From positions 1 through 16,671 of the forward strand of contig JACCYY010000014.1 in the NCBI GenBank assembly GCA_013696235.1: a DNA stretch of 16,671 nt, given 5' to 3'. The position numbers were made by a program, and so were the translations under genes. Under the pieces are notes generated by a model that made no database searches, was not told the origin of the DNA, and saw nothing but the letters and a program-made list of their open reading frames with translations. Shown here one piece after another: positions 176 through 15,989 of this stretch; position 1 is the stretch's first letter, and every line of letters starts with the position of its first letter. Origin of the DNA: Sporichthyaceae bacterium (GTDB lineage Bacteria > Actinomycetota > Actinomycetes > JACCYY01).

Positions 176-664
176 ATGGCTGACTCATCGTTCGACGTGG
201 TGAGCAAGGTCGACCGACAGGAGATCGACAACGCCCTCAACCAGGCCGCGAAGGAGATCGCGACCCGGTTCGACTTCAAGAACGTCGGGGCCTCGATCGC
301 GTGGTCTGGCGACAAGATCGAGATGGTCGCCTCGTCCGAGGACAGGGTCAAGGCCGTGCTCGACGTGTTCAGGGACAAGCTCGTCAGGCGCGGCATCTCG
401 CTCAAGGCTCTCGACGCCGGCGAGCCACGGCTCTCGGGAAAGGACCACCACATCACCGCTTCGATGCAGGACGGCATCACGCAGGAGAACGCGAAGAAGG
501 TGGCGAAGATCATCCGGGATGAGGGACCCAAGGGCGTGCGGGCTCAGATCCAGGGCGACGAGCTCCGCGTCAGCGCGAAGAAGAAGGACGACCTCCAGGA
601 GGTCATCGCCCTCCTCAAGGGTCAGGAGCTCGACTTCGCGATCCAGTTCACCAACTACCGCTGA
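176..664 (+). CDS. yajQ: YajQ/DUF520-family nucleotide-binding protein
   Basis: The 162-residue product has the usual YajQ length. It opens with the characteristic [13 protein letters not shown] segment, continues with TRFDFK and the central [15 protein letters not shown] region, and ends with [10 protein letters not shown], the conserved family C-terminus. YajQ proteins are small cytoplasmic proteins with two ferredoxin-like folds; some members bind cyclic-di-GMP and act as effectors, others were described as RNA- or nucleotide-binding. Which applies here cannot be read from the sequence. The ATG is preceded by GGGAGGA (163-169) with a 6-nt spacer, which fixes the start. It is the only gene at this end on the plus strand: it diverges from tRNA-Tyr and converges on the lysozyme-like gene with 27 nt between the stops. 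Confidence 0.95.
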
Positions 665-1495: not shown

Positions 1496-1625
1496 CGTGC
1501 CTCCAGGTGTTGCTGCCGTGATCGATGGGACAGGTGTGACAACAGTCGCGAGCTCCGGATCGTAGTGCGATCCCCTTGATTGCGGTAGCCCACCGCGTTC
1601 CGGGGGGCCGGATGGTCGCCGGGGA

Positions 1626-2486
1626 TCAGCGCGGGTAGCCGGCCATGCGCTCGAGCCGCGCAACCCGGTCCGCCATCGGCGGGTGGGTGCTGAACAGCCG
1701 GGACCAGCCCTCGGGCCGGAACGGGTTCGCGATCATCAGCGCGCTCGTGGTCTGCAGCTCCGGCGCGGGTCGAAGCGGCAACGCCCGCGTACCGGCCTCG
1801 AGCTTGCGCAAGGCGGCCGCGAGACCGAGCGGGTCGCCGGTGAGGACCACCCCGGACGCGTCGGCCTCGTACTCGCGTGACCGGCTCACGCCGAGCTGGA
1901 CCACCAGCGCTGCGACCGGCGCCAGCACGAGCAGGAACAGCCCGTTGACCAGACCGCCGTCCTCGTCGTCAGCGGGTCGCCCGAACGGCAGCAGCCAGGC
2001 GAGCTGGACACCGAGCATGACGGCGCTGGCCAACGCTGTGGTGATCGACGAGACGAGGATGTCCCGGTTGAGGACGTGCGAGAGCTCGTGCGCCAGCACC
2101 GCGCGGAGCTCGCGCTCGTCCAGCATCGTGAGGATGCCTTCCGTGCAGCACACCGCCGAGTGCCGCGGGTCCCGCCCGGTCGCGAACGCGTTCGGCGCGG
2201 CGGTCGGCGAGACGTAGAGGCGCGGCATCGGCTGTCGCGCGCCGGTCGAGAGCTCGCGCACGATGCGGTACATCACCGGCTGCATCGCCTCGCTCACGGG
2301 GTACGCCCGCATCGCCCGCAGCGCGACCTTGTCACTCGCGAGATACGCGGCGCAGTTCATGCCGATCGTCGCGACGAGGGCCACGACCAGCCCGAGCGGG
2401 CCGAAGAACGAGCCGACGACGAGGATCAGCCCGGACAGCGCGGTCAAGAGCGCAGCCGTCCGGAGCGTGTTCCGCGAGGCGTGCAC
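1626..2486 (-). CDS. htpX: HtpX-like M48 zinc metalloprotease (membrane)
   Basis: With the GTG at 2486 the product has 286 residues, the usual HtpX length. Residues about 12-50 contain two hydrophobic segments. LAHELSHVLNRD supplies the HExxH zinc motif (H133, E134, H137), and SREYEADA (203-210) supplies the third ligand, probably E205. Two more hydrophobic segments lie at about 148-168 and 180-200, and STHPP near the C-terminus is another family signature. HtpX proteases sit in the cytoplasmic membrane with a cytosolic active site and degrade misfolded membrane proteins. I preferred the GTG at 2486 to an in-frame ATG at 2576: GGGAGGG sits just upstream, and the N-terminus HASRNTLRTA resembles family starts, while the extension is low-complexity. 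It lies downstream of nuoN after 120 bp. A role in quality control of this large membrane complex is plausible but not shown. Confidence 0.9.
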   Translation of the reverse strand: MHASRNTLRTAALLTALSGLILVVGSFFGPLGLVVALVATIGMNCAAYLASDKVALRAMRAYPVSEAMQPVMYRIVRELSTGARQPMPRLYVSPTAAPNAFATGRDPRHSAVCCTEGILTMLDERELRAVLAHELSHVLNRDILVSSITTALASAVMLGVQLAWLLPFGRPADDEDGGLVNGLFLLVLAPVAALVVQLGVSRSREYEADASGVVLTGDPLGLAAALRKLEAGTRALPLRPAPELQTTSALMIANPFRPEGWSRLFSTHPPMADRVARLERMAGYPR

Positions 2487-2566
2487 CAGCCCTCCCGTCA
2501 GCAGGGTCGAGATCCGGGGGCGGGGCGGGCCCTCGACACCGCCACCGCGTGGACAACGAGCACGCG

Positions 2567-2600
2567 GGGTGCCCACGTTCCCGGCCTGCGGTCGGCACCC
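2567..2600 (-). terminator. Possible stem-loop between nuoN and htpX
   Basis: GGGTGCC (2567-2573) and GGCACCC (2594-2600) are perfect 7-bp inverted repeats with a 20-nt GC-rich loop. They lie directly downstream of the nuoN stop at 2607. There is no U-tract, so if it acts at all it would be a weak GC-rich terminator or processing stem. Stems of this size are common by chance in DNA this rich in GC. Confidence 0.22.
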
Positions 2601-2606
2601 ACCCGG

Positions 2607-4160
2607 TCACAGCACCGCGAGCACGGCCTGCGGCCAGATCGACAGCGCGACGCCGCCTGCAAGCGCGAGCCCGACCGCGACGGACGGCGCTCGACCGTGC
2701 GCGCGGATCTCGAGCCCACCTTCGTAGGGCGACGCGGCGGGGATGGCGAAGATGACCGCCGTCCAGCGTAGGTAGTAGGCCAGCCCGAGCACGACGTTCA
2801 CCGCCATCACCACCGCGAGCCAGCCGAGCCCGGCATCCACAGCGGACCGGAGCACGACGACTTTCGTGACCAGCCCGGCGACCCCTGGTGGTACGCCGGC
2901 CAGCGAGACGAGGAAGAACGCGAGCGCGATGCCCGCCAGCGCGCTGGTCCGGATCATCCCGGTGTAGTCCGCGACGGTTCTTGCCCCGGTCGTCCCCCGA
3001 AGGCTGTCGGTCACCGCGACCACCGCGAACGCGCCAAGGTTCATCACGGCGTAGACGGCGAGGTAGGCGATCGTGGCAGCCGCACCGTCGAGGGCGAGCC
3101 CGCGCGCGCTGGTTGCGATCCCGGCCGCGGCGAGCGGGACGAGCATGAAGCCCGACTGCGCTATCGAGGACCAGGCCAGGAGGCGTACGACGTCGGTCTG
3201 CCGCAGCGCCCCGAGGTTGCCGATCGTCATGGTCAGCGCGGCGATGATCGCGAGCACGGTGCCCCATGCCTCGCCGTACGGACGAAGCCCGAACCACAGC
3301 ACGACCAGCAGACCGGCGAAACCGCCGGACTTCGAGACGACCGAGAGGAACGCCGCGACCCGGACCGGTGCGCCCACGTACGCGTCGGGCACCCAGCCGT
3401 GGAACGGCACGGCGGCGACCTTGAAAAGGAGCCCGGCGAGCAGCAGCGTCGCGCCGACCGCGGCGACCGGTGTCGACGCGGTCCCGGCGACGAGCGCGCC
3501 GGCGAGCAGGTCGAAGTAGAGCGTGCCGGTGACGCCGTACAGCAGGGCCGCGCCGAAGAGCATCACGGCGAGGGCCACCACCGACACGAGAAAGGCCTTG
3601 AGGGCGCCCTCCGCGGCCGACGGGTGCTCGCGCGTCTGACCAGCCGGCAGCGCGATCATCGCGAAGGCCGGGAGCGAGAGCACCTCGAGCGCGATCACCA
3701 GGGTCAGCACGTCGCGCGAGGCAGCGATCGCCATCGCGCCCGCCAGCGAGACGAGCAGCAGGAAGTGGTACTCCCCAGACAGCCGGCCAGACAGCCGGCC
3801 CGACAGCCGGCCCGGTGCCCCTGGCGCCGGACCTGGATCGTCCCGGACCGGAAGCATGATCACGACGGCGGCGCCGACGAGCGAGATCGCCTGCAGCGCC
3901 CAGGTGATCGGCTCGACCACGAACGAGCAGGCCGACAGCCCACCACCGGCATCGATGCAGAACGTGCCCCGCTCACGGTCCGTCTGAGCCACCAGGAGGG
4001 CGCCGGCGAGGACGACCACGCCCAGCGTCGGCCACCGCAGCGCGGCTCGGCGCGCGGGCGGCACCCACAGATCGGCGAGCAGAACACCGATCGAGCCGAG
4101 CGCCACCACGAGCGTCGGGCCCAGCGCCACCCAGTCGACCGACTGCACGAGCGACGTCAT
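2607..4160 (-). CDS. nuoN: NADH-quinone oxidoreductase subunit N (antiporter-like)
   Basis: This 517-aa polytopic membrane protein is the antiporter-like proton-pumping subunit of complex I next to the NuoA/H/J/K core. Functional residues are in place: the Glu in IALEVLSLPAFAM (E159) and the Lys in LLFKVAAVPFHGWVPDA (K247, with H254), the key charges of the antiporter fold. Residues 118-129 are three copies of RLSG, encoded by a 12-bp tandem repeat in a loop between transmembrane helices. The ATG at 4160 has only a weak upstream GGTGG. Unlike the other nuo genes it is not overlapped by its predecessor: nuoM lies about 3.5 kb away, separated by the E1 and acyl-CoA dehydrogenase genes and then a 100-bp gap. 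It may therefore have weaker coupling or its own signals. Confidence 0.95.
   Translation of the reverse strand: MTSLVQSVDWVALGPTLVVALGSIGVLLADLWVPPARRAALRWPTLGVVVLAGALLVAQTDRERGTFCIDAGGGLSACSFVVEPITWALQAISLVGAAVVIMLPVRDDPGPAPGAPGRLSGRLSGRLSGEYHFLLLVSLAGAMAIAASRDVLTLVIALEVLSLPAFAMIALPAGQTREHPSAAEGALKAFLVSVVALAVMLFGAALLYGVTGTLYFDLLAGALVAGTASTPVAAVGATLLLAGLLFKVAAVPFHGWVPDAYVGAPVRVAAFLSVVSKSGGFAGLLVVLWFGLRPYGEAWGTVLAIIAALTMTIGNLGALRQTDVVRLLAWSSIAQSGFMLVPLAAAGIATSARGLALDGAAATIAYLAVYAVMNLGAFAVVAVTDSLRGTTGARTVADYTGMIRTSALAGIALAFFLVSLAGVPPGVAGLVTKVVVLRSAVDAGLGWLAVVMAVNVVLGLAYYLRWTAVIFAIPAASPYEGGLEIRAHGRAPSVAVGLALAGGVALSIWPQAVLAVL
3776..3811 (-). repeat. 12-bp tandem repeat (3 copies) inside nuoN
   Basis: Three adjacent 12-bp units on the plus strand read cagacagccggc, cagacagccggc and ccgacagccggc (one mismatch in the third). 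The unit is a multiple of three, so the frame is kept and the minus strand encodes RLSG three times. The repeat sits in a loop between hydrophobic segments. It is probably a slippage-generated in-frame expansion and could vary in copy number between strains. Confidence 0.85.
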
Positions 4161-4260
4161 TCGGGGCCACCGCGGGATCGAGAGCGAAGCGAGCGAGCGC
4201 GGGGTCCCCGAGGAGTCGCGAGCGCAGCGAGTGACTTCGTGGGGTGCATGTGTGGGGTGA
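4161..4260. other. 100-bp spacer between acyl-CoA dehydrogenase gene and nuoN with GC-rich extragenic repeat
   Basis: The spacer holds two related stretches built from GCGAGCG/AGCGAG words (about 4182-4199 and 4215-4231), flanking the near-palindrome GGGGTCCCC (4201-4209). Such gagcgaagcgagcg-type extragenic repeats are common in high-GC actinobacteria. I see no convincing -10/-35 or Shine-Dalgarno for nuoN here, only a weak GGTGG upstream of 4160. Being intergenic within the presumed transcript, it may act as an attenuating or processing element, but that is inference. Confidence 0.5.
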
Positions 4261-5433
4261 TCATGAAAAGGCTCCGTGCCCGGTGAGCGCCTGGCCGATC
4301 ACCAGGCTGTGCACCTCCGAGGTGCCCTCGTAGGTGAGCACCGACTCGAGGTTGTTCGCGTGCCGGAGCACGCCGTACTCGAGCGTGATGCCGTTCGCAC
4401 CGAGGATCGTGCGGCACTCACGGGCGATCTTCAGCGCCTCGCGCACGTTGTTGAGCTTGCCCAGGCTGACCTGGCGTCCTTCGAGCCGGTGCTCGTCCTT
4501 GAGCCGGCCGAGGTGCATCGCCAGCAGGAACGCCTTTTGCAGCTCCAGCGCCATGTCCGCGAGCTTGGCCTGGGTGAGCTGGAATGCGGCCAGCGGGCGC
4601 CCGAAGACCTCGCGCTCGCAGGCATACGCGATCGCGGTCTCGAGGCAGTCCCGGGCCGCGCCGACCGCGCCGAACACGATCCCGAACCTGGCCTCGTCGA
4701 GGCAGGACAGCGGGCCACGCAGGCCACGGGCCTCGGGCAGCACCGCCGAGGCCGGGAGCCGTACGCCGTCGAGCACGAGCTCGGAGGTGATCGACGCTCG
4801 CAGCGAGAGCTTGCCGTGCATCGTGGTGGCGGAGAATCCCGCAGTGCCGACCGGCACGAGGAACCCACGGATGCCGTCGTCGGTCTGCGCCCACACGACC
4901 GCGACGTCGGCGACCGAGCCGTTGGTAATCCACATCTTCGTGCCGTCGAGCACCCAGCCGTCGCCCTCACGTCGCGCCCGGGTGCGCATGCCGCCGGGGT
5001 TGGAGCCGAAGTCCGGCTCCGTCAGTCCGAAGCAACCGATCGCCTCGCCGGCGGCCATCCGCGGCAACCACGCGGTCTTCTGCTCCTCGCTCCCCCACCG
5101 CCAGATCGCGAACATCGCCAGCGACCCCTGCACGGAGACGAAGCTGCGGGTCCCGGAGTCGCCGGCCTCGAGCTCGAGGCAGGCGAGCCCGTACGAGGTC
5201 GCGCTGGTCCCCGCGCAGCCGTAGCCCTGCAGGTGCATGCCGAGGAGACCCAGCGCCCCGAAGTCCTTGGCCAGGTCGACCGGGAACGTGCCGGCCTCGT
5301 ACCAGGAGGCGACATCCGGCCGGATGCGCTCGGCGACGAAGCGCCGGACGGTCGCCTGGATGTCGCGCTCGTCGTCGGTGAGCAGATGGTCGATGACCAG
5401 GAGCTCCAACGCACCGACCCGTTCAGTCGCCAT
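4261..5433 (-). CDS. gcdH: Acyl-CoA dehydrogenase, glutaryl-CoA dehydrogenase-like
   Basis: This is a 390-aa FAD-dependent acyl-CoA dehydrogenase. It contains CFGLTEPDFGSNPGGM and DGTKMWITNG (FAD/substrate-binding middle domain) and the helical C-terminal domain with REVFGRPLAAFQLTQAKLA. The C-terminal LTYEGTSEVHSL places the catalytic base at E369. It resembles glutaryl-CoA dehydrogenases most: the segment before GTRSFVSVQGSL keeps counterparts of human Arg94 and Ser98 (R96, S100) and Glu87 (E89), and a Tyr precedes the catalytic Glu. I recall the Glu87 and Tyr counterparts as typical of the decarboxylating type. The predicted reaction is glutaryl-CoA to crotonyl-CoA plus CO2, passing electrons to ETF. 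The ATG at 5433 follows GGAGGAGG at good spacing. It overlaps the upstream E1 stop by 11 nt, so the two are probably co-translated. The frame runs open to 5841 but only antisense to the E1 frame. The position between nuoM and nuoN is unusual. Confidence 0.88.
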   Translation of the reverse strand: MATERVGALELLVIDHLLTDDERDIQATVRRFVAERIRPDVASWYEAGTFPVDLAKDFGALGLLGMHLQGYGCAGTSATSYGLACLELEAGDSGTRSFVSVQGSLAMFAIWRWGSEEQKTAWLPRMAAGEAIGCFGLTEPDFGSNPGGMRTRARREGDGWVLDGTKMWITNGSVADVAVVWAQTDDGIRGFLVPVGTAGFSATTMHGKLSLRASITSELVLDGVRLPASAVLPEARGLRGPLSCLDEARFGIVFGAVGAARDCLETAIAYACEREVFGRPLAAFQLTQAKLADMALELQKAFLLAMHLGRLKDEHRLEGRQVSLGKLNNVREALKIARECRTILGANGITLEYGVLRHANNLESVLTYEGTSEVHSLVIGQALTGHGAFS

Positions 5434-7702
5434 GCGTCCTCCTCCGGTCGGCGAGCTCTCGGGCGGCCAGCTCGACCCTGTCCGATGCCACCAGGACGTG
5501 CAAGGCGGCGGCGCCGAGGGGGACGAAGCTGTCCTCCGCGGCCACCCGAGCCAGCGGCCCACGGAAGCCCGCGTCGAGCAGAGCGGCCATGACGCCTTCG
5601 GCGACGCCGCCGGTCCGCCGGGTCTCGTCCACGACGAGCACCCGGCCGGTGGCGTGTGCGGCGTCGAGCAGGTCGTCCAGCGGGAGCGGCGCGAGCCAGC
5701 GCAGGTCGACCACGCGCGCGGCGATGCCGTCAGCGGCGAGCCGGGCGGCCACCGACAGCGCCATCGGGACGCCGTTGCCGAACGTGACGAGCGCGAGATC
5801 GCCGCCGTCACCCCAGGTGCGGGCTCGTCCAACCGGGACATGCCGCTCGACCCATCTCGCGGGTGCGTCGTACGGGGCGCAGCAGGCCCCGTCGCCGGGC
5901 GTGGAGAGGTCCCGTTCGTGGTACCGCGCGATCGGTTCGAGGAACACGCACACCGAGCCGTCGACCAGCGCGGCTGCGACGCAGGTCCGAAGCATGGCTG
6001 GCGCGTCGGCCGGTCCCGAGGGCGAGGCGATGATCAGCCCGGGGACGTCCCGGAGGACGGCCACCGAGCTGTCGTTGTGGAAGTGCCCGCCGAACCCGCG
6101 CTGGTAGCCGTACGCGGGGACCCGCACGACCATGGGGTTGCGGTAGCGGCCCTGGGAGAAGAACTGCAGCGTCGCGGCCTCGCCGCGGATCTGGTCCTCG
6201 GCGTTGTGGAGGTATGCGAGGTACTGGATCTCCGCGATCGGCAGCAGGCCGGAGACACCCGCGCCGAGCGCGAGGCCGAGCACCGCCTGCTCGTCGAGCA
6301 ACGTGTCGAAGACCCGCCCGGCGCCGAAGCGCCGCTGCAGTCCTCGGGTCACCCCGTAGACGCCGCCCTTCGCGGCGACGTCCTGGCCGAAGACCAGCGC
6401 ACCGGGCGTCGCGGCGAGCACGTCGTGCAGGGCGCGGTTGATGCTCTGGGCCAAGGTCAAGGGACCCTCGTCCTCCGGGAGCCGGCCGCCGAAGATCCCC
6501 AGCCGGCGGTGGTGATCTGCCGCGACCGCAGCCCGGTCGGCGACGGCCGCCGGCCGGCGGGGCGCGATCGGCGCCATGATCGTCGGTGCGTCGGCCAGCT
6601 TGGGTAGCCGGACCACCTCCGCGGCAGTCGCGTCGACCCGCGCCCGGACAGCGTCGTAGCGCGCGAGCAGGCCCGCTGGGTCGAGCACGCCGGCCTGGAC
6701 GAGCCTCTTGGCGGCGTGCACCAGCGGGTCCCGCGCAAGATCTGCAGCGATCGCGGTGCTCGAGCGGTAGCCCGCCTCCGCGTCGGATCCCGCGTGCCCC
6801 ATGAGACGGACGGTCGTGAGGTGCAAGAAGGCCGGGCGCCGGCGGCCACGGACGTACGCGACGGCTTCGCGGGCGACCGCGAGCACGTCGAGGACGTCGC
6901 TCCCGTCGGCGGCCAGGTAGCGCAGCCCCGGCCGCGCCTGGTACGCGGCGCGGACCCAGCCTGCGGGGGTGGGCACGCTGATCCCGAGCCTGTTGTCCTC
7001 GCAGACGAGCAGCAGCGGGAGCGGCAGGCCCTGGTAAGCGATGTGGCAGGCGGTGTTGATCGCCCCGGCCGCGGTCGAGTGGTTGACCGACGCGTCCCCG
7101 AAGCTGCACACCGTGATCGCGTCCGACGGCCACGGCGAGGCGACGCCGAGCTTCCGCGAACGTTCGACCGTCAAGGCCACTCCGACCGCCCGCGGCAGGT
7201 GTGAGGCGATGGTGGACGTCTGCGGGATCACGGCCAGATCGGCGTGCCCGAAGACCTTGTGCCGACCGCCGGCGATCGGCTCGGCGGCGGCCGCGACCAG
7301 CCCGAGCAGCACGTCGCGGATGCCGTCGTGGCCGGCGACCTGGCCGGCTCGGCGGAGGTAGAACCCCCCGGAGCGGTAGTGCAGCAGCGCCGGGTCGGTG
7401 GGGCGCAGGGCCGCGGCCACCGCGGCGTTCGCCTCGTGACCGGCCGACCCGATCGTGTAGAACGCCTCGTCGCGCGCTCGCAGGTCACGCGCCACGAGGT
7501 CGAGGTGGCGGCTGCCGGCGGCCGCGTCGAAGAGCTCGAGCAGCTCACGTGCGGTGTCGGCGTCGAGACGGTCCACCGGGCCGGCGGGCACGGGCGTGGT
7601 GGCGAGCTCGGCGACCCTGTCGCGGAAGTGCTGGTCGACGGGATCGGTGTCCAGGCTCTGCACGGTCGTCGCCCGGGCGCGCACGGTGGCGACGCGGACC
7701 AC
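5423..7702 (-). CDS. Fused 2-oxoacid dehydrogenase E1 (alpha + beta), thiamine-diphosphate dependent
   Basis: This about 759-aa protein joins both halves of a heterotetrameric E1. Residues about 50-360 are E1-alpha-like: YTIGSAGHEAN, HYRSGGFYLRR, and the thiamine-diphosphate/Mg motif starting GDASVN (202-207) and closing at VCEDN (233-237). A linker at about 370-412 is followed by an E1-beta-like part: SINRALHDVLA, FGQDVAAKGGVYGVT, and LLDEQAVLG with the expected cofactor-activating Glu at 471. The loop GGHFHNDSS (538-546) replaces the usual HSQS-type loop. The tail (DLRWLAPLP, VVDETRRTGGVAEG) is transketolase-C-like. E1 decarboxylates a 2-oxoacid and transfers the acyl group to a lipoyl-E2; the substrate is not readable from sequence. 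GTG 7702 lies 2 nt after the nuoM stop, with a G-rich stretch upstream; an in-frame ATG at 7771 is an alternative. No E2 or E3 gene is in this window. Confidence 0.87.
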   Translation of the reverse strand: MVRVATVRARATTVQSLDTDPVDQHFRDRVAELATTPVPAGPVDRLDADTARELLELFDAAAGSRHLDLVARDLRARDEAFYTIGSAGHEANAAVAAALRPTDPALLHYRSGGFYLRRAGQVAGHDGIRDVLLGLVAAAAEPIAGGRHKVFGHADLAVIPQTSTIASHLPRAVGVALTVERSRKLGVASPWPSDAITVCSFGDASVNHSTAAGAINTACHIAYQGLPLPLLLVCEDNRLGISVPTPAGWVRAAYQARPGLRYLAADGSDVLDVLAVAREAVAYVRGRRRPAFLHLTTVRLMGHAGSDAEAGYRSSTAIAADLARDPLVHAAKRLVQAGVLDPAGLLARYDAVRARVDATAAEVVRLPKLADAPTIMAPIAPRRPAAVADRAAVAADHHRRLGIFGGRLPEDEGPLTLAQSINRALHDVLAATPGALVFGQDVAAKGGVYGVTRGLQRRFGAGRVFDTLLDEQAVLGLALGAGVSGLLPIAEIQYLAYLHNAEDQIRGEAATLQFFSQGRYRNPMVVRVPAYGYQRGFGGHFHNDSSVAVLRDVPGLIIASPSGPADAPAMLRTCVAAALVDGSVCVFLEPIARYHERDLSTPGDGACCAPYDAPARWVERHVPVGRARTWGDGGDLALVTFGNGVPMALSVAARLAADGIAARVVDLRWLAPLPLDDLLDAAHATGRVLVVDETRRTGGVAEGVMAALLDAGFRGPLARVAAEDSFVPLGAAALHVLVASDRVELAARELADRRRTHGD

Positions 7703-7704
7703 GG

Positions 7705-9237
7705 TCAGCCCCCCGTCCCGAGCAGCGTCGCGACTGCCGGGTCGGTGAGCCCGAGCAGCAGCCCGGGCCACACCCCGAGCAGGACGACGAGCACGACCAG
7801 CGGCGACCAGGCCAGCGCCTCGATGCTGGAGACGTCCTCGAGGCTCGAGCGCCGCGGAGCTGCGTCAGCGATCGGTCCCTGGCAGACCCGACGGACGGTC
7901 TGGAGCAGGTAGGCAGCGGTGAGCACCGCACCGACCCCGGCCAGCGTCATCAGCGTGAGGTAGAGCCCACGCGGGAGCGCGGAGGACGGGTCGTACGCGC
8001 CGAGCAGCGTGAGCATCTCGCCCCAGAAGCCGGCCAGGCCGGGGAGGCCGAGGCTGGCGACCGCAGCGAACGCGAGGATCGCGGCGAGCCGGGGCGCCCG
8101 CGCGTAGAGCGCACGGCCGACCCCGTCGAACGACGACGACCCGTGCCGGTCCTTGATCCCGCCGACCACGAAGAACAGCAGGCCGGTGATCAGGCCGTGC
8201 GCGACGTTCGCGTAGAGCGCGCCGTTGATGCCGGCCGGGGTGAGCGTGGAGATGCCGAGCAGGACGAAGCCCATGTGGCCGACGCTGGAGTACGCGATCA
8301 ACCGCTTGAGGTCGGTCTGGGCCAGGCAGGCGAAGGAGCCGTACAGGATGCCGACCACGCCGAGCGCGCCGAGGTACGGCGCCAGCACCTCGGTGCCCTC
8401 GGGGACGACCGGCAGGACCACGCGCACCATGCCGTAGGTCCCCATCTTCAGCAGCGCGCCGGCCAGCAGCACCGAGCCGACCGTCGGGGCAGCCGTGTGT
8501 GCGTCGGGCAGCCACGTGTGCAGCGGCCACATCGGGGTCTTGACCGCGAGCCCGCCGAGCATCGCCAGCGCGGCGATCACCTGCGTGCCGCGGGCCATCC
8601 CTGCGCCCGCTCCGTCGGCAAGGGCGACCAGGTCGAACGTGCCGGTCTCGGCGTGCACCACGAGGAAACCGAGCACCATGACCGCGGAGCCGAGCAGCGT
8701 GTAGAGGATGAACGTGTTCGCCGCGGATCGCGCTGTGCTGGATGGGGTGCTGTCACCCCAGACGGCGATCACGAACCACATCGGGATCAGCACGACCTCG
8801 AAGAACAGGAAGAACAGCACGAGGTCGAGTGCGACGAACGTGCCGAGGAGGCCGACCTCGAGCAGGAGGAGCACGGCGACGAACGCCCGCGGCTGGGCCG
8901 CCTTCGGCATGACTCGCGTTGTGTACGCGAGGCAGAGGAACGCCAGGAGCGCGGTGAGCAGGACCAGCGGGAGCGAGATGCCGTCGACGCCCAGGTGGAA
9001 CCGCAGGTCCAACGCCGGCACCCATGACAGGTCGGTCTCCAGCTGGAACGTGCCGGCGGCGTCGTGGTCGAACGCAAGAACCGCAACGACGGCCAGCACG
9101 AGCGTGATCCCGCCGAAGATCGCTCCGAGCGGTCGAGCCACCCGGTCCCCGCGGGGTCCCGGGACCAGCGCGACCACCGCGCTCCCGAGCGCTGGGACGA
9201 TGATCATCGCGAGCAGGACCCAGGCCTCGGCGCTCAC
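7705..9237 (-). CDS. nuoM: NADH-quinone oxidoreductase subunit M (antiporter-like)
   Basis: This 510-aa antiporter-like proton-pumping subunit lies in the complex I membrane arm, between NuoN and NuoL in the assembled complex. FFEVVLIPMWFVIAVWG gives the conserved Glu (E147), and AVKTPMWPLHTWLPDAH gives the conserved Lys (K233) and His (H240). TAAPTVGSVLLAGALLKMGTYG and GIxDRHGSSSFDGVG are further family segments. The GTG start at 9237 overlaps the nuoL stop as GTGA, so translation is coupled. Downstream, the next gene is the fused E1 rather than nuoN, starting 2 nt past this stop. Length and residues are ordinary for the family. Confidence 0.96.
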   Translation of the reverse strand: MSAEAWVLLAMIIVPALGSAVVALVPGPRGDRVARPLGAIFGGITLVLAVVAVLAFDHDAAGTFQLETDLSWVPALDLRFHLGVDGISLPLVLLTALLAFLCLAYTTRVMPKAAQPRAFVAVLLLLEVGLLGTFVALDLVLFFLFFEVVLIPMWFVIAVWGDSTPSSTARSAANTFILYTLLGSAVMVLGFLVVHAETGTFDLVALADGAGAGMARGTQVIAALAMLGGLAVKTPMWPLHTWLPDAHTAAPTVGSVLLAGALLKMGTYGMVRVVLPVVPEGTEVLAPYLGALGVVGILYGSFACLAQTDLKRLIAYSSVGHMGFVLLGISTLTPAGINGALYANVAHGLITGLLFFVVGGIKDRHGSSSFDGVGRALYARAPRLAAILAFAAVASLGLPGLAGFWGEMLTLLGAYDPSSALPRGLYLTLMTLAGVGAVLTAAYLLQTVRRVCQGPIADAAPRRSSLEDVSSIEALAWSPLVVLVVLLGVWPGLLLGLTDPAVATLLGTGG

Positions 9238-11138
9238 GTCCCGGCCGCCGTCCAGGCGGCGACGATCACGAGGACCGTGCCGGCGAGCAGCACGGTGAGG
9301 TACCGCTGCAGGTCACCGTCCTGGCTGCGGCGGACCGCGGCCCCGAGCCGTTGGCTCACCGTGCCCGACCCGGTCACCGCCGCTCCCACGACGTCGCGGT
9401 CGGCGACCAGGGTTGCCGCGGCGATCCGGCGCGCGGGGCGCACGACGACCCGGTCGTAGAGCGAGTCGACCCCGAACCCGCGGTCGAGCACCGGTTCGAG
9501 CCGGCCGAGCAGCCGCGCCGGATCGGCCGTGGTTCGGCGCCAGGAGAGGTAGGTCAGGCCGGCTCCGATCGCCGCGAGCACGAGGCTGGCGATGGAGGTG
9601 ACCAGGCCGGGCGCGAGCAGCGTCGCTTCCGCGGGGACGAGGTCCGTGATTCCGGCCGGCTCGACTGTGAACGTCAGACGGTCCAGCCACGCCGGGAACC
9701 AGTCGTTGCGGAGACCGATCACCCCCAGCCCGACGGTGGTGGTGGCCAGCACGACCAGCGGGCCACGCATGGTCCACCCGACCTCGTGCGGCTGAGCCGG
9801 TGCGGAGCGTGTGCCGAAGAACGCCAGCAACCAGAGCCGGGTGGCGTACGCGGCAGTGACAGTGACCGTGATCATCGCCACGACGAGGACGAACCACGGC
9901 ACCCACGCCGTCGCCGCCGAGCCGTCGTGGATGGCCTCCTCGGCCCCGACGAAGATCGCTTCCTTGGAGAAGAACCCGCTGAAGGGTGGGATCCCGATCA
10001 GCGCGGCGAGCCCGATCGTCATGGTGACGAACGTGACCGGCATGATCCGCCGGAGGCCACCCATCTCGGGCAGCAGGTTCGTCCCGACGACGTGGATCAA
10101 CGCCCCGGCGGCGAGGAAGAGCAGCGCTTTGAACGCCCCGTGGGTGATCAGGTGGAACATCCCCGCCTCGTACGCCTGCACACCGAGCGCGGCGAGCATG
10201 TACGCCAGCTGGCTGATCGTCGAGTACGCGAGCACACGCTTGATGTCGGGCTGCACGAGAGCAGCCAGCGCGGCGCCGAGCATGGTGATCGCCGCGATCA
10301 CGGCGAGGACGGCCAGCGTGGCGGCGGCGGCCAGGAACACGTCGTACAGGCGGGCGACCAGGAAGACACCTGCGGCCACCATGGTCGCGGCGTGGATCAG
10401 CGCGCTCACCGGCGTCGGCCCGGCCATCGCGTCCGGCAGCCAGACCTGCAGCGGGAGCTGTGCGGACTTGCCGACGACGCCGGCCAGCAGCAGCAGCGTG
10501 ACGACGGTGAGGGTGTTGCCCGCCATCAGGTCGTCGCCCACGAGCAGCTCGAGGTCGCTGATCCTGAACGTGCCGGAGCCGAGGCCGAGCCCGAAGATCC
10601 CGAACATGAACGCGATGTCGCCGATGCGAGTGACCAGGAACGCCTTGACGCCGGCCCGCCGGGCATCGCGCAGCTCCCAGTGGTGGGCCACCAGGAAGTA
10701 CGAGCAGATGCCCATGACCTCCCAGCCGATGAGCAAGATGATCAGGTCGTCGGCGTGGACGACCAGCATCATGGCGGCGGTGAACAGCGAGATCAGCGCT
10801 GCGTACGAGGGGTAACGCGGGTCCCCACCGAGGTAGGAGACCGAGTAGATCTGCACCGCGAGCGCGACCGCGGCGACCATGATCGCCACGGTGGCGCTGA
10901 GCCCGTCCAGCCGGAGCGCCACCTGCATCGGCGCGGTGCCGTTCGGGATCAGCCCGTACGACGCGCTGTCCGCGACGCCGTCGACGACGTTGGCGATGGC
11001 TGTGCCGGCCGTGACCGCGAACGTCACGAGCGCACCGCCGACCGCCACGGCCGCCGCTCGACGAGACCGGCCGAGCGCGGTCAGCCCGACCAGCGCAGCG
11101 AGCGCCGGGACGAGAATCGCGGCCAAGGCTGGCGTCAC
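9234..11138 (-). CDS. nuoL: NADH-quinone oxidoreductase subunit L (antiporter-like, distal)
   Basis: This 634-aa protein is the distal antiporter-like subunit with the long lateral helix. Conserved features include [18 protein letters not shown] (E140), [20 protein letters not shown] (K224), [15 protein letters not shown] (H249) and the [16 protein letters not shown] loop. Hydrophobic segments run through the whole protein, and the C-terminal part ([21 protein letters not shown] onward) fits the lateral helix and final anchor. NuoL carries out one proton translocation step and its amphipathic helix clamps NuoM and NuoN. The GTG at 11138 overlaps the nuoK stop by 4 nt (GTGA), and its own stop overlaps nuoM the same way. 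Confidence 0.96.
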
Positions 11139-11551
11139 GGCGGGGAGCCTGATCGCTGGGCCTGGCGGCCGATCGTGGTGTCGTGATCTTCATCGGCGTC
11201 GGGGGCATCGAGGTCGGGGCCGTCGTGATCGGGGCCGTCGTCGTGGTCGGCGAGCGTGCGCAGCAGGTCCAGATCGATCGTCGCGGACCCGCGGAAGACG
11301 GCGAGCACGATCGCGAGTCCGAGCCCGATCTCGGCCGCAGCGATGGTGATCACGAACAGGGTCAGCGCCTGGCCGGTGTGGAGCGTGTCGCGCAGGTACA
11401 CGTCGAAGGCGACCAGCAGGAGGTTGACCGCGTTCAGCATGAGCTCGACACCCATGAGCACGAGGACGGCGTTGCGCCGGGCCAGCACCGCGTACACGCC
11501 GATCGCGAACAGCGCCGAGGCGATCACGAGCGGGACGGCCAGATGCATCAC
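11135..11551 (-). CDS. nuoK: NADH-quinone oxidoreductase subunit K with acidic/His-rich C-terminal extension
   Basis: NuoK is a small three-helix membrane subunit carrying two buried Glu residues needed for coupling. Here [19 protein letters not shown] supplies E36 and [15 protein letters not shown] supplies E74. NuoK is normally about 100 residues; this one has 138. Residues from about 101 on form a hydrophilic tail very rich in Asp and His ([16 protein letters not shown] repeats), which is unusual. The reading begins GTG-ATG: GTG at 11551 has GAGG 7 nt upstream and overlaps the nuoJ stop by 4 nt, while ATG at 11548 is the alternative. The stop overlaps nuoL by 4 nt. Confidence 0.94.
11213..11242 (-). 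repeat. 15-bp tandem repeat encoding the Asp/His tail of NuoK
   Basis: On the plus strand gtcggggccgtcgtg (11213-11227) is followed by atcggggccgtcgtc (11228-11242), two 15-bp units with two mismatches. On the minus strand they encode [14 protein letters not shown] residues in the NuoK tail. The unit is a multiple of three, consistent with in-frame slippage extending the C-terminus. Confidence 0.7.
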
Positions 11552-12063
11552 GAGTCGACCTCGTCGCCCGACGCCCTGGACAGCGCGATCGCCCCGACGA
11601 GAGCGGAGAGGAGGAGCAGCGAGATGATCTCGAACGGCAGCACCCAGGCGCGGAAGATCACTGTGCCCGTCGTGGTCGCGTCACCCTGCGGCGCGCCGCT
11701 CAGGTCGATGGTCGCCCCGCCGAACGCCATGAGGAGGGCGGTGACGATGACCGCCCCGACCGCGACCGCGACGGTGCCGGCCAGGAGGCGTCGCGGGCGC
11801 GACAGGTCGGTGACCGGGCCGATCGGTGCGCGGGTGAGCATGAGCCCGAACAGCAAGATCACGACGATCGCGCCGACGTAGATGAGCACTTGGACCCAGG
11901 CCAGGAACTCCGCGGTGAGGACGAGGAAGCAGCCGGCGACCGCGGCGAGGCACACCACGAGCCAGAGTGCGGCGTGCACGAGCTGGCGGGTGACGGCGAC
12001 CATGAGTGCGGCCCCCACGGCGACGAGGCCGAGGAGGCCGATGACGACGTCCAGTCCCGTCAT
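11548..12063 (-). CDS. nuoJ: NADH-quinone oxidoreductase subunit J
   Basis: This 171-aa membrane subunit belongs to the complex I core between the quinone module and the antiporter-like subunits. It has an N-terminal hydrophobic pair of segments, then [22 protein letters not shown], the conserved pi-bulge-bearing helix (Y62-V63-G64), a hydrophilic loop, and a final hydrophobic segment at about 139-162. The ATG at 12063 overlaps the nuoI stop by 4 nt (ATGA). Length and content are normal for actinobacterial NuoJ, which is shorter than some homologues with long C-terminal tails. Confidence 0.95.
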
Positions 12064-12650
12064 CCGGTCTCGCCGTCAGGCGGTGTCACCCGCGGCCGGA
12101 CAGTCGGCTCGGTGGTCGGCCCAGCGGTTGGCTCGGCTGCGAGGGGCGGAGGTTCGATGGCCTTGCGGGCAGCCGCCAGCTCCTTGGCCGGCGCGCTGTG
12201 GACGTCGAGCGGCGGTGGGGCGGGAACCGTCCACATCCACTCGCGCAGGCGGTCCTTCTCGTGCACGAGATCGCGGATGTCGAGCTCGGCGTACTCGAAC
12301 TCCGGGGACCAGAAGAGCGCGTCGAACGGGCAGACCTCGATGCAGATGCCGCAGTACATGCACAGCGCGAAGTCGATCGCGAACCGGTCGAGCACGTTGT
12401 GCGAGCGGTCCTTGGCACCCTCCTCGACCGCCGGCACGACCTCCTTGTGCGAGTCGATGTAGATGCACCAGTCCGGGCACTCGCGCGCGCAGAGCATGCA
12501 GCTCGTGCAGTTCTCCTCGAGCAGCGCGATGACGCCCCGGCTGCGCGGCGGCAGGGCCGGCTTCTCGTCCGGGTACTGCCTCGTCACCGACCGGCGCGTG
12601 AGGTTCTGGAGCGTCACCCGGAGACCATCGAGGAGACCCAGGCGCGCCAT
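12060..12650 (-). CDS. nuoI: NADH-quinone oxidoreductase subunit I (two [4Fe-4S] clusters)
   Basis: This 196-aa ferredoxin-like subunit carries the two tetranuclear clusters that pass electrons toward N2 in NuoB. Ligand sets are C48-xx-C51-xx-C54-xxx-C58-P and C97-xx-C100-xx-C103-xxx-C107-[21 protein letters not shown] and [11 protein letters not shown] closely resemble what I remember of a second, NADH-module-lacking nuo cluster in Streptomyces. Residues after about 145 form a Pro/Ala-rich tail. I chose the ATG at 12650 because AGGA lies 7 nt upstream and [14 protein letters not shown] aligns with family starts; a GTG at 12716 lengthens it by 22 residues but has no Shine-Dalgarno. Unlike its neighbours, it is not overlapped by the upstream nuo gene: the toxin-antitoxin pair and a 103-bp spacer intervene. 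Confidence 0.94.
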
Positions 12651-12753
12651 GGGCACATCCTGTCCCGCGCGGCCGCCGATGACGAGCACTCGACCTTGGG
12701 GTTTCCCACCATTCACCTGAGCCGATGGTCAGGTCAGGCCATGCTCGGCCAGA

Positions 12754-13179
12754 TCAGGCGCCGAGCGCGCTGACCGTCTCGTCGGTCGGACGTAGGTGCT
12801 CGAGCCCTGGGATGGAACCGAATCCGCGGTCTGCTGACACGAGCGGTGCACCCGTGGCGATCGCGACCGAGGCGAGGAGTGCGTCGAACATCCCGACGGT
12901 CGGGTTCGACTGGAAGATCGCGAGCGCATCTACAAGGTTTGCCTCATCACTCACAAGCAACGGACCGAAAAGATTCAGGTACGACCGACCGCGCGCAACT
13001 GCGTCCGCCCGATCCCGACGCTGACTCCGAACGTGGACGAACTCCTGGAGAACCTCGACCGTCGTACGCGCCACGATCGCGCGCGCGTCCACCGCCGCGA
13101 CCAGTCGTCGACAGGGTTCGCGGAACTGGTGCTCGCCACCGACGGCGTACACCAGGACAGTCGTGTCGAGGACAATCAT
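12754..13179 (-). CDS. vapC: PIN-domain ribonuclease toxin (VapC-like)
   Basis: This 141-aa protein has all four acidic PIN-domain positions: D5 in MIVLDTTVLVYA, E46 in VEVLQEFVHV, D99 in GMFDALLASVAIATGAPLVS, and D117 in SADRGF. PIN toxins cut RNA, often tRNA or rRNA, using a divalent metal and are silenced by a partner antitoxin. The ATG at 13179 overlaps the antitoxin stop by 4 nt, the usual antitoxin-first coupling. The stretch around 12920-12980 is visibly richer in A/T than the surrounding nuo genes, suggesting later acquisition. It lies in the same orientation as the nuo operon, between nuoH and nuoI. The target RNA cannot be predicted. Confidence 0.9.
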   Translation of the reverse strand: MIVLDTTVLVYAVGGEHQFREPCRRLVAAVDARAIVARTTVEVLQEFVHVRSQRRDRADAVARGRSYLNLFGPLLVSDEANLVDALAIFQSNPTVGMFDALLASVAIATGAPLVSADRGFGSIPGLEHLRPTDETVSALGA

Positions 13180-13436
13180 GCTCGCCGGCTGCGAATCTCG
13201 TTCAGCTCGGCGACAAGATCCTCGACTCGCTCGGGAACGTCCATCGGTGGGGCGTTGAGGATGTCGCGCGCCGCCGCCGCTCGGCGGCGGTCATCTGGCT
13301 CAGCCAGGCTGCGATCGATGGCGTCACGAATCACTGCCGCCACGGAGATCTGTCGGACCGTCGCGATTGCCGCGACCCGCTCGTAGCGTTCCTCGTCGAG
13401 CAGAATCTGCAACCGCCGACTCATCGTCATACACAT
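13176..13436 (-). CDS. Ribbon-helix-helix antitoxin partnering the PIN toxin
   Basis: The product is 86 aa or slightly shorter. Residues about 6-44 (RRLQILLDEERYERVAAIA, then ISVAAVIRDAIDRSL) match a CopG/Arc-type ribbon-helix-helix DNA-binding fold: a short beta strand followed by two helices. The C-terminal half, acidic and basic by turns (PPMDVPERVEDLVAELNEI), would be the toxin-binding segment. Three ATGs in frame (13436, 13430, 13424) lie close together and none has a Shine-Dalgarno; the last gives MSRRLQ, the most family-like start. An 11-bp inverted repeat overlaps the first two starts, fitting autoregulation. The gene begins 31 nt after the nuoH stop, so it may be read both from the nuo operon and from its own promoter. 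Confidence 0.87.
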   Translation of the reverse strand: MCMTMSRRLQILLDEERYERVAAIATVRQISVAAVIRDAIDRSLAEPDDRRRAAAARDILNAPPMDVPERVEDLVAELNEIRSRRA

Positions 13437-13467: not shown

Positions 13468-14421
13468 TCAGAGAACGGCAATAACGCCGGTCAGCGCGAG
13501 CTGAGCGAGCGCGAGCGGGACGAGGACGGTCCAGGCGAGGCGCTGGAGCTGGTCCTCGCGCAGGCGCGGGAAGGCGACGCGGAACCAGATCACCACGAGC
13601 GCCAGCGCCATCGTCTTCGCCAGCGTCCAGATCCACCCGATCTCGCCGGACCACGGGCCCTTCCAGCCGCCGAGGAACAGCACCGCGGTCAGCGCGCAGA
13701 GCAGGACGATGCCGGCATACTCCGCGAGCAGGAAGAATGCGAACCGCAGCCCGCCGTACTCGGTGTACGGCCCGAACACGATCTCGGAGTCCGCGACCGG
13801 CATGTCGAACGGGGGCCGGGCCAGCTCGGCCAGCCCGGCGACGAAGAACACGATCGCGCCGGGCAGCTGCCAGAGCAGCCACCACGGCTCCCACGCGTCG
13901 ACGATCCCGGTCAGCGACAGCGTTCCGGCCGCCATCGCGACCGACGCCGCTGCCAGCACGAACGGCAGCTCGTACGCTAGGAGCTGCGCGGCCGTGCGCA
14001 TGCCCCCGAGCAGCGCGTACTTGTTCGCGCTCGCCCAGCCGGCCATGAGCGTGCCGACGACGCCGACGCTCATCACGGCGAGCACGAAGAACAGGCCCAG
14101 GTCGAGGTCCTGCCCGACCAGGCCGGGACCGATCGGGACCGCGACCAGCGCGACGAGGTACGGGACGAGCGCGATCCCCGGTGCCAACCGGAAGATCGTC
14201 CGGTCGGCGGCGGCCGGGACCGTGTCCTCCTTCTGCACGAACTTCACGCCGTCAGCGACGAGCTGCAGCCACCCGTGGAACCCGCCGGCGTACATCGGGC
14301 CGAGTCGCGACTGCATGTGCGCCATCACCTTGTGCTCGGCCTGGCCGACCGCGAGCGGCAGCACGAGAAACGCGGCGAGCACCGCGACCAGCCGCACCGC
14401 GACGTCGAGCACCTCGCTCAC
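13468..14421 (-). CDS. nuoH: NADH-quinone oxidoreductase subunit H, with altered acidic loop
   Basis: This 317-aa membrane subunit forms the base of the quinone cavity with NuoB and NuoD. Family features include [28 protein letters not shown], and [20 protein letters not shown]. The cytoplasmic loop normally written R-x-PFDLPEAESEL reads [15 protein letters not shown] here (201-215). The first of the usual acidic residues is V209, the second is D211 instead of Glu, and only E213 is standard. GTG 14421 overlaps the nuoC stop by 4 nt (GTGA) and has GGAGGG 9 nt upstream; the frame is open to 14934 but that part is antisense-like nuoC DNA. Directly downstream comes the antitoxin gene rather than nuoI. 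In full operons nuoH is preceded by nuoG, and nuoD follows nuoC; neither is here. Confidence 0.95.
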
Positions 14422-15071
14422 GACGAAGGTCCCTCCGCCGTCGAGTCTGCGACGCTGGGTCGCGTCGCGGGGAGCTCGCGCGGCCCCCAAGCCGCGTCGG
14501 GGACGCCCGGTGGTTGCATGCGTCGCCGGCCGGGTGCCCCGTCGCCGGACTCGCCGGGCTCCTTCGCGCCGGGCCAGGGCTTGGCCGCGCGGGCGGCGAG
14601 CACGAAGTCCTTGCGCAGCGGGTGGCCCTCGAACGCGTCGGGGAGCAGGAGCGGGACGAGGTGCGGGTGCCCCTCGAACCCGATGCCGAACATCTCGTAG
14701 GTCTCCCGCTCGTGCCACGCCGCCCCGCGGAAGACGCCGGTCGCGGTCGGCAGGCTCGGCGCGAGCGCCGACAACGTCGTACGGACGAGCAGGTGCGTCA
14801 CCGACCCAGGCGTACCGACCGCCGCGAGATGGGCCACGACGTGGAACCCGTCCTCGCCGTGGTCGACCGCGGACATCCAGTCGAGATAGTCCAGCCCGGC
14901 GCGGTCCCGCAGCGTCGTGAGCGCCTGCACCCACTCCTCGGCCGGCACCTCGAGCGTGGCCGGGTACGAGTCCTCGTCGAGCCAGACCTCGACCCCCAGG
15001 GCAGCGGCGAGCAGGTCGCGGATCCCCGCGGCGTCGGCGGTCGCAGGGGGCTCGGTGGCCTCAGCCGCCAT
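14418..15071 (-). CDS. nuoC: NADH-quinone oxidoreductase subunit C (30-kDa subunit) with C-terminal extension
   Basis: This 217-aa protein belongs to the complex I 30-kDa family. The signature [20 protein letters not shown] followed by [16 protein letters not shown] (about residues 118-155) is unmistakable. NuoC is a soluble connecting-arm subunit that packs against NuoD and NuoB. Beyond the signature is an about 60-residue Pro/Gly/Arg-rich tail without recognisable fold; it is not a NuoD fragment. The ATG at 15071 overlaps the nuoB end by 11 nt. The following gene is nuoH, overlapping by 4 nt, so nuoD is missing from its normal place rather than merely displaced by an insertion. Confidence 0.93.
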
Positions 15072-15627
15072 ACCGGTCCCCGAGCGACTCCGCGGCGATC
15101 TTCTCCTGGAGCCGCACGATGCCCTGGAGCAGCGCCTCGGGTCGCGGCGGGCACCCCGGCACGTACACGTCGACCGGGATGATCTGGTCGACGCCCTTGG
15201 TCACCGCGTACGAGTCCCAGTACGGTCCGCCGCAGTTGGAGCAGGCGCCGAAGGAGATCACGTACTTCGGCTCGGGCATCTGCTCGTAGAGCCGCCGGAC
15301 CGCCGGTGCCATCTTGTCGGTGACGGTGCCGGACACGACCATGAGATCGGCCTGGCGCGGACCCGGCGCGAACGGGATCACGCCGAGCCGGATGAAGTCG
15401 TGCCGGCTCATCGAGGTGGCGATGAACTCGATCGCACAGCAGGCGAGCCCGAAGTTGAACACCCAGAGGCTGTAGCGGCGACCCCAGTTGAGCACCACGC
15501 GCAGCGGGTCCGGCGCGAGCCTGGAGATCGGGCCGAGCGTGGGCATCCCGAGCTCGGTCGTCCCAGTCGCCGGCCCAGTAGCCGGCCCAGTCGTCGACAC
15601 CTCGGTCGAAGCCGCACTCAGGTCCAC
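15061..15627 (-). CDS. nuoB: NADH-quinone oxidoreductase subunit B (cluster N2)
   Basis: This is a 188-aa subunit with the N2 [4Fe-4S] cluster that reduces quinone. Ligands are C63-C64 (LACCAIEF), C129 ([10 protein letters not shown]) and C159 (VPGCPPRPE), the same spacing as E. coli NuoB. C132 is an additional cysteine where complex I enzymes usually have Ser or Thr. The N-terminal stretch before GPISRLAPD is short and repetitive (GPATGPATG). I set the start at GTG 15627, with AAGGGGG about 7 nt upstream, overlapping the nuoA end by 10 nt; the frame remains open to 15852 but only antisense to nuo[21 protein letters not shown] matches my memory of the actinobacterial second-cluster NuoB. Confidence 0.95.
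15562..15597 (-). repeat. 12-bp tandem repeat at nuoB 5' end
   Basis: Plus-strand units cccagtcgccgg, cccagtagccgg and cccagtcgtcga follow each other, the third with more mismatches. On the minus strand they encode the [11 protein letters not shown] stretch near the NuoB N-terminus. The units share the AGCCGGC word with the 12-bp repeat in nuoN. In-frame slippage is the simplest explanation. Confidence 0.7.
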
Positions 15628-15989
15628 CGCAGCACCCCCTTGCGCCAGGCGTAGACGATGCCGACGGCGAGGAAGCCGAGGAACACACCCATCTCGACGA
15701 GCGTCGTCACGCCGTAGCCGGGGGCGGCGAACACCGTCGCCCAGGGGAAGAGGTAGACCGCGTCGACCGCGAACACGACAAAGAGGTAGGCGTAGATGTA
15801 GTAGCGCAGGTGCGTCTGCGCCCAGCCCTCGCCGACCGGGTCCACGCCGCACTCGTATGTCGTGAGCTTCTCGACGGTCGGGGCGTTCGGCCGGATCAGG
15901 CGGTTCGCCGCGAACGCCGACGCGACGAACACGACGCCGAGGGCGATCAAGATCGCGACGACCAGGTACCCGCTGAAGTAGTCGCTCAC
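15618..15989 (-). CDS. nuoA: NADH-quinone oxidoreductase subunit A, with altered acidic pair
   Basis: This 123-aa three-helix membrane subunit is the first gene of the cluster. [20 protein letters not shown] matches the conserved NuoA loop (YECGxxPxG). In the second helix [15 protein letters not shown] differs from the usual FDxE: the normally conserved Asp is A74 and the Glu is D76. NuoA and NuoH together line the entry of the proton path, so this change is notable. The GTG at 15989 has a strong Shine-Dalgarno, GGGAGG, with a 5-nt spacer. The stop overlaps nuoB by 10 nt. It diverges from the plus-strand gene at 16058, with 68 bp in between. Confidence 0.95.

What the first reader, a model, noticed from the sequence alone, without database searches (positions are those of the whole stretch)
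4261..7702. Fused E1 and glutaryl-CoA dehydrogenase-like genes inserted between nuoM and nuoN
Two catabolic enzymes interrupt the normally contiguous nuoL-M-N block. The E1 start lies 2 nt after the nuoM stop, and the acyl-CoA dehydrogenase overlaps the E1 by 11 nt, so they are wired into nuo expression rather than loosely adjacent. A 2-oxoacid dehydrogenase making glutaryl-CoA followed by glutaryl-CoA dehydrogenase would be consecutive steps of lysine/tryptophan breakdown (2-oxoadipate to crotonyl-CoA). The reducing equivalents could be linked to this complex I variant. That pathway link and the E1 substrate are inference.
Basis: partly seen in the sequence, partly recalled or inferred. Interest (0 to 1): 0.8.

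Follow-up and report, generated by a model that had tools for sequence, protein, structure and literature searches.

The report
Lysine-breakdown gene pair inside respiratory operon
In one little-known lineage of actinobacteria, two neighbouring genes that probably carry out late steps of lysine breakdown sit inside an accessory respiratory-complex operon; the gene pair itself recurs in other bacteria and only its address here is unusual.

Summary
On the minus strand a fused E1 (7702-5423) starts 2 nt after the nuoM stop, and a glutaryl-CoA dehydrogenase-like gene (5433-4261) overlaps it by 11 nt, before nuoN. The host operon is the accessory actinobacterial nuo2 cluster (A-C, H-N; no D/E/F/G).

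In other genomes the E1 often lies with lysine-degradation genes: of 111 E1 loci (109 distinct), 22 carry L-lysine 6-transaminase, 26 a piperideine-6-carboxylate-dehydrogenase-like gene, 16 this dehydrogenase; 11 have the order lat-p6cdh-E1-GCDH, and 74 show no marker. The window's GCDH groups, with moderate support, with E1-linked GCDHs.

The nuo placement is exceptional: no nuo gene was seen in the held flanks of the 111 E1 loci, and 39 other nuo2 loci have nuoM-nuoN gaps of 0-414 nt. It is probably no artefact: E1 and nuoM relatives (79-85% identity) share contig length and source in two further assemblies, an indirect sign.

Most likely the tail of a lysine operon was captured by nuo2. Coupling to nuo2 is not shown; a toxin-antitoxin-like pair in the same operon favours passenger capture.

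The parts
5423..7702 (-). Fused alpha/beta 2-oxoacid dehydrogenase E1, 759 aa, proposed 2-oxoadipate dehydrogenase E1 (start codon not settled)
   Evidence: coordinates; Pfam; family conservation; lysine-gene context in other genomes
4261..5433 (-). Glutaryl-CoA dehydrogenase (decarboxylating type by residues), 390 aa; overlaps the E1 end by 11 nt
   Evidence: groups it with 14 E1-linked GCDHs (87/94)
7705..9237 (-). nuoM of the nuo2 cluster; stop 2 nt before the E1 start
2607..4160 (-). nuoN of the nuo2 cluster, 100 nt after GCDH
4161..4260 (-). GCDH-nuoN spacer; no unusual fold
   Evidence: folded as 4161-4263, z -0.27
9234..11138 (-). nuoL
11135..11551 (-). nuoK
   Evidence: homologues
11548..12063 (-). 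nuoJ
   Evidence: homologues
12060..12716 (-). nuoI
12754..13179 (-). PIN-domain toxin-like gene, a second insert in the operon
   Evidence: GC3 0.739 against 0.881-0.968 for nuo genes; no hit in the held DNA of the 40 nuo2 loci
13176..13436 (-). Small ORF before the PIN gene, 86 aa, antitoxin-like by position (4-nt overlap)
   Evidence: family not tested
13468..14481 (-). nuoH (start not settled)
14418..15071 (-). nuoC; no nuoD follows
15061..15621 (-). nuoB (start not settled)
15618..15989 (-). nuoA
1626..2576 (-). htpX-like (named by recall), conserved neighbour of nuo2
   Evidence: Homologues beside nuoN in most loci
176..664 (+). yajQ-like (named by recall), frequent neighbour of nuo2
   Evidence: Homologues in part of the loci

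Best explanation
The two genes are the downstream half (E1-GCDH) of an actinobacterial lysine-degradation operon, lat-p6cdh-E1-gcdh. In the ancestor of one lineage they were inserted between nuoM and nuoN of the accessory nuo2 cluster, where they are now read from the nuo2 transcript. Proposed chemistry: lysine to 2-aminoadipate (LAT, P6C dehydrogenase), to 2-oxoadipate (transamination); the fused E1, with an E2 and E3 from elsewhere, makes glutaryl-CoA and NADH; GCDH makes crotonyl-CoA and CO2 and passes electrons to ETF. NADH and reduced ETF feed the respiratory chain in general, so no special link to nuo2 is needed. Shown: gene order, family membership, recurrent linkage of this E1 with lysine genes and GCDH, rarity of the nuo position among the loci examined. 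Inferred: 2-oxoadipate as substrate, co-transcription, direction of the relocation.
For:: of 111 E1 loci examined (109 distinct), LAT near E1 in 22, P6CDH-like in 26, GCDH at 60% identity or more in 16; all four genes in order in 11 (L039, L040, L042, L201-L207, L209); the LAT of L042 passes its curated cut-off (679.6 against 520.8 bits); so does the LAT of L115 (657.1); 10 of those 11 loci have a possible GCDH start -4 to +2 nt from the E1 stop (L039 unresolved); window GCDH groups with 14 E1-linked GCDHs (87/94, below the tool's star threshold); window E1 and five relatives form a clade (100) whose sister, at 93, is the LAT-P6CDH-linked E1 of L115; in the alignment to human GCDH the window keeps DSG-x-RS and TYEG, which hold the glutaryl-binding Arg and Tyr and the catalytic Glu (roles recalled); nuo linkage seen nowhere else; nuoM and E1 relatives share contig lengths 227579 and 8424 and source.
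Against: 74 of 111 E1 loci show none of the five lysine-type markers; many are Nonomuraea/Streptosporangium-type loci. The P6CDH-like gene is far below its curated cut-off (332.6 against 730 bits). The own genome (72.84% complete) shows no LAT over the cut-off and no close P6CDH (best 32% identity), and its only E2-domain hit lies in a 1281-aa fusion of Kgd type, so the rest of the pathway is not shown here. Source names call close E1s 2-oxoisovalerate dehydrogenase. The E1 tree does not join the window E1 to the four-gene-operon clade, although the GCDH tree joins the GCDHs; both supports are moderate.
Confidence: 0.74

Rival explanations
1. Specific functional coupling: the pair was kept in nuo2 because nuo2 uses its electrons (reduced ETF, or NADH made on the spot) or because the ACAD helps build the NuoM/NuoN arm, as ACAD9 helps to assemble mitochondrial complex I.
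For: Tight junctions; the linkage seems older than one species (indirect); nuo2 has no NADH-binding subunits and its function is called unclear in PMC9239103 (passage seen).
Against: None of the 39 other nuo2 loci with both nuoM and nuoN has the pair, and no nuo gene was seen in the held flanks of 111 other E1 loci. A PIN gene with an antitoxin-like ORF is inserted in the same operon, so the operon tolerates passengers. The ACAD scores far better against GCDH than against ACAD9 (628.7 against 123.6 bits).
Confidence: 0.1
2. The E1 acts on another 2-oxoacid (branched-chain, 2-oxoglutarate or an unknown one) and its linkage to GCDH and lysine genes reflects shared regulation rather than consecutive steps.
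For: Source names say 2-oxoisovalerate dehydrogenase or MFS transporter; the closest solved E1s are pyruvate and branched-chain E1s; 74 of 111 loci show no lysine-type marker.
Against: Linkage to LAT, P6CDH-like genes and GCDH recurs in several separate E1 clades, and GCDH in two gene orders. The family has RHK (147-149) where T. thermophilus branched-chain E1 aligns RQM; it is kept in 116 of 116 rows with letters there, though 80 of these rows were found with patterns of which one includes this stretch.
Confidence: 0.17
3. The contig is a metagenome assembly artefact.
For: The genome is fragmented (384 contigs, 72.84% complete) and the window is a whole contig; the arrangement was not seen directly in any other genome.
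Confidence: 0.03

Closest known systems
Mammalian 2-oxoadipate dehydrogenase (DHTKD1) followed by glutaryl-CoA dehydrogenase
   Same: Proposed consecutive reactions 2-oxoadipate to glutaryl-CoA to crotonyl-CoA; the first step is described in abstract starts listed (PMC9367764, PMC9198357)
   Different: The E1 here is a fused alpha/beta E1 of the pyruvate/branched-chain type, not an OGDH-like E1 (DHTKD1 type recalled); E2 not identified
Actinobacterial L-lysine 6-transaminase / P6C dehydrogenase route to 2-aminoadipate (Streptomyces clavuligerus, abstract start of PMC3880171)
   Same: lat and a p6cdh-like gene stand upstream of this E1 on its strand in 22 of 111 loci
   Different: The window has neither gene; with E1 and GCDH the route would be catabolic
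Streptomyces nuo2 cluster SCO4599-SCO4608
   Same: Second, partial nuo cluster lacking D, E, F and G; function unclear (PMC9239103, passage)
   Different: The window cluster has nuoC and nuoL, which that passage lists as lacking (a table in PMC3897704 lists SCO4606 as NuoL2, passage), and carries E1-GCDH and a PIN gene
ACAD9, mitochondrial complex I assembly factor
   Same: An acyl-CoA dehydrogenase associated with complex I (8phe; abstract starts)
   Different: The window protein is a GCDH by sequence and residues; no assembly role shown

Membership tests
Glutaryl-CoA dehydrogenase (decarboxylating) | Acyl-CoA dehydrogenase three-domain architecture | tested here: met
   N, M and C domains above cut-off
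Glutaryl-CoA dehydrogenase (decarboxylating) | Closest solved relatives are GCDHs | tested here: met
   9 of the 10 best chains bear the name (one as putative), the tenth is named acyl-CoA dehydrogenase; human GCDH 376 bits, next family (SCAD) 230 bits
Glutaryl-CoA dehydrogenase (decarboxylating) | Arg and Tyr for the distal carboxylate, catalytic Glu (human R94, Y369, E370; numbers and roles recalled) | tested here: met
   alignment: DSGTRS and TYEG conserved
Glutaryl-CoA dehydrogenase (decarboxylating) | NCBIfam model GlutCoADH_Des over cut-off | tested here: not met
   191.1 against 470 bits; by recall this model describes a non-decarboxylating enzyme
Glutaryl-CoA dehydrogenase (decarboxylating) | Activity on glutaryl-CoA | not testable with these tools
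   Needs assay
2-oxoacid dehydrogenase E1, fused alpha-beta | E1_dh plus transketolase pyrimidine and C-terminal domains in one chain | tested here: met
2-oxoacid dehydrogenase E1, fused alpha-beta | ThDP-site Asp/Asn and catalytic Glu/His present (roles recalled) | tested here: met
   D203, N237, H303, E471 and H540 invariant in all rows with letters (116 or 117 of 117); the usual GDG reads GDA in 115 of 116
2-oxoadipate dehydrogenase E1 | Preference for 2-oxoadipate | not testable with these tools
   Only gene context
lat-p6cdh-E1-gcdh lysine operon | All four genes together | tested here: not met
   Window holds only E1 and GCDH; LAT and close P6CDH not found in the 72.84% complete genome
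Respiratory complex I (Nuo) | NuoD and the NADH module E-F-G in the cluster | tested here: not met
   No room between nuoC and nuoH; in 40 relatives' loci no hit to the canonical D, E, F or G sequences except one NuoD-like gene on the opposite strand in L184

The most novel reading that the evidence does not exclude
nuo2 is a NADH-module-less complex I whose electrons come from acyl-CoA and 2-oxoacid oxidation, and in this lineage the donor enzymes (2-oxoadipate E1 and GCDH) were fixed inside its operon, so lysine breakdown feeds nuo2 directly or through ETF.
Probability: 0.05. Interest if true: 0.8.

Novelty: new variant of a known kind. Interest (0 to 1): 0.4.

Why it matters
It points to a likely bacterial 2-oxoadipate dehydrogenase E1 of a type different from the mammalian one and often named 2-oxoisovalerate dehydrogenase, found beside lysine genes in several actinobacterial groups; the listings of the searches made here showed no paper describing it. 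The nuo2 position gives a testable, though weak, clue to a complex I variant whose role is called unclear.

Tried and rejected
Chance juxtaposition or mis-called genes: rejected. Canonical nuo operon: rejected, it is nuo2. Unique to one genome: not decided by direct DNA. No close relative is held; a further search of 393 class genomes at E 1e-295 gave 8 with a match, the best besides the window at 64-66% identity. Indirect support came from equal contig lengths. Against it: no E1 length equals a nuoN length, so no nuoN relative was listed for the 227579-bp or 8424-bp contigs and the GCDH-nuoN joint is not confirmed elsewhere. nuoM and nuoN relatives share four lengths (5669, 13424, 20253, 33453), none of them among the E1 lengths; the 5669-bp one (nuoM 73%, nuoN 65%) is too short for a full insert, which would bracket the insertion if equal lengths mean one contig. 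Spacer hairpin: nothing notable. Repeat of a spacer word: 5 matches with up to 3 mismatches, 1.57 expected, reached in 6 of 200 shuffles; not pursued. Promoters and terminators: 0 and 3 found, 0.4 and 2.5 expected. Structure prediction not run: would not settle the substrate. Paper searches on nuoM/nuoN with ACAD, nuo2 (29, 45, 53), 2-oxoadipate (46), lysine and ACAD9 (75) listed no description of this arrangement; I saw listings and abstract starts, and passages of PMC9239103, PMC3897704 and PMC9739823.
Full report
Observation. The minus strand of the window reads nuoA-B-C-H-(antitoxin-like, PIN)-I-J-K-L-M-E1-GCDH-N-htpX. The E1 GTG (7702) lies 2 nt after the nuoM TGA, the GCDH ATG (5433) overlaps the E1 stop by 11 nt, and nuoN follows after 100 nt. 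Pfam and NCBIfam support the identities. Codon use of the two inserted genes correlates with that of the nuo genes at 0.988 and 0.980, and tetranucleotide use of the insert lies within the range of other stretches (0.977; controls 0.963-0.981), so nothing suggests recent foreign DNA or a cross-species join.

The host operon. nuoD, E, F and G are absent; the only NuoD found in this genome is on contig C71, in a separate cluster with nuoA-B-C-D. nuoN of this type was found at E 1e-70 in 64 of 296 class genomes, own included. I fetched 40 of the 63 other places; 39 had both nuoM and nuoN hits, with aligned-end gaps of 0-414 nt and no E1 between. The literature knows this cluster as nuo2 in Streptomyces, function unclear (PMC9239103, one passage); that passage lists C and L as lacking too, which does not hold for the window.

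The inserted pair elsewhere. I examined 111 E1 loci (11 + 80 + 20; 109 distinct) with the flanks held; 95 of 111 have more than 3 kb on both sides. None had a hit to nuoB, H, L, M or N at 30% identity over 100 residues. Ten class genomes besides the window's hold both an E1 and a nuo2 nuoN; in none are they together (different contigs in eight, about 860 kb apart in G094 and G195). In the 111 loci, L-lysine 6-transaminase stands near E1 in 22, a P6C-dehydrogenase-like gene in 26, GCDH at 60% identity or more in 16, a DAO-type oxidase in 11 and a glutamate-dehydrogenase-like gene in 5; 37 loci have at least one and 74 have none (distinct loci 21, 25, 16, 11, 5 and 36). The transaminases of L042 and L115 pass their curated cut-off; the aldehyde dehydrogenases have P6C dehydrogenase as best model but below cut-off. 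E1-GCDH order (11 loci) and GCDH-E1 order (L092, L103, L110, L213) occur in separate E1 clades, which argues for a functional link.

History. In the GCDH tree (39 rows, midpoint root) the window sequence groups with 14 E1-linked GCDHs (87/94). In the E1 tree (109 rows, quick method) the window E1 and P0001-P0005 form a clade at 100, sister at 93 to L115, whose E1 follows LAT and P6CDH. So both trees tie the pair to lysine-type operons, but to different ones, with moderate support. Among the five best-listed E1 entries two (P0004, 79%; P0005, 82%) have longest-contig lengths 8424 and 227579 with source ENA; two of the four best-listed nuoM entries (P0124, 83%; P0123, 85%) have the same lengths and source. 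With lengths jittered by 5%, two such coincidences among top five and top four never occurred in 20000 trials. One other shared length, 2686, is too short to hold both genes. This indicates, without proving, that nuoM and E1 are neighbours in a lineage and not in one MAG alone. No nuoN relative was listed with those lengths.

Mechanism. From established biochemistry (recalled): E1 with E2 and E3 would turn 2-oxoadipate into glutaryl-CoA and NADH, and GCDH would oxidise and decarboxylate it to crotonyl-CoA, reducing ETF. The GCDH residues fit. The E1 has ThDP and catalytic residues in place and an invariant RHK stretch where a branched-chain E1 has RQM; because the 80 named loci were found with two patterns, one covering this stretch, only the other 36 rows with letters there are unselected evidence, and its role in binding a second carboxylate is a guess. 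E2 is not identified: the single E2-domain hit in the genome lies in a 1281-aa fusion of Kgd type (name by recall). LAT and a close P6CDH were not found in the 72.84% complete genome, so the substrate could also come from another route.

Verdict. The pairing is a recurrent module, most often seen beside lysine genes where its context is informative; its position in nuo2 is exceptional and probably lineage-specific. The same operon also carries a PIN gene with an antitoxin-like ORF, without a hit in the held DNA of the 40 other nuo2 loci, and some relatives have other genes between nuoH and nuoI (L163, L182, L183, L185). That makes passenger capture the simplest reading; coupling to nuo2 stays possible but unshown.

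Noticed in passing
L221-L225; nuo2 genomes: 12 of 12 near-complete nuo2 genomes carry, besides canonical NuoD, a second divergent NuoD away from nuo2 (36-37% identity to this genome's NuoD in the five loci fetched); in G021 (L225) such a gene lies beside nuoN2. It may be the missing NuoD of nuo2.
   Followed up: partly
window 12754-13436 (-): PIN-domain gene with an overlapping small antitoxin-like ORF between nuoH and nuoI, lower GC3 (0.739), no hit in the held DNA of 40 other nuo2 loci.
   Followed up: partly
window 16177-16671 (+): ORF with a weak helix-hairpin-helix match; homologues (34-41%) lie on the opposite strand between nuoH and nuoI in L163, L182, L183, L185.
   Followed up: no
window 692-1663 (-): Lysozyme-like SLT_3 domain plus a sub-threshold SH3_3 match.
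   Followed up: no
Nonomuraea/Streptosporangium-type loci, e.g. L054, L055, L062: The same E1 stands apart from lysine genes, next to an unidentified conserved gene on the opposite strand (cluster 1, in 37 loci).
   Followed up: no
Source names for this E1 family are 2-oxoisovalerate dehydrogenase E1, thiamine pyrophosphate-dependent enzyme or even MFS transporter; possibly misnamed.
   Followed up: partly
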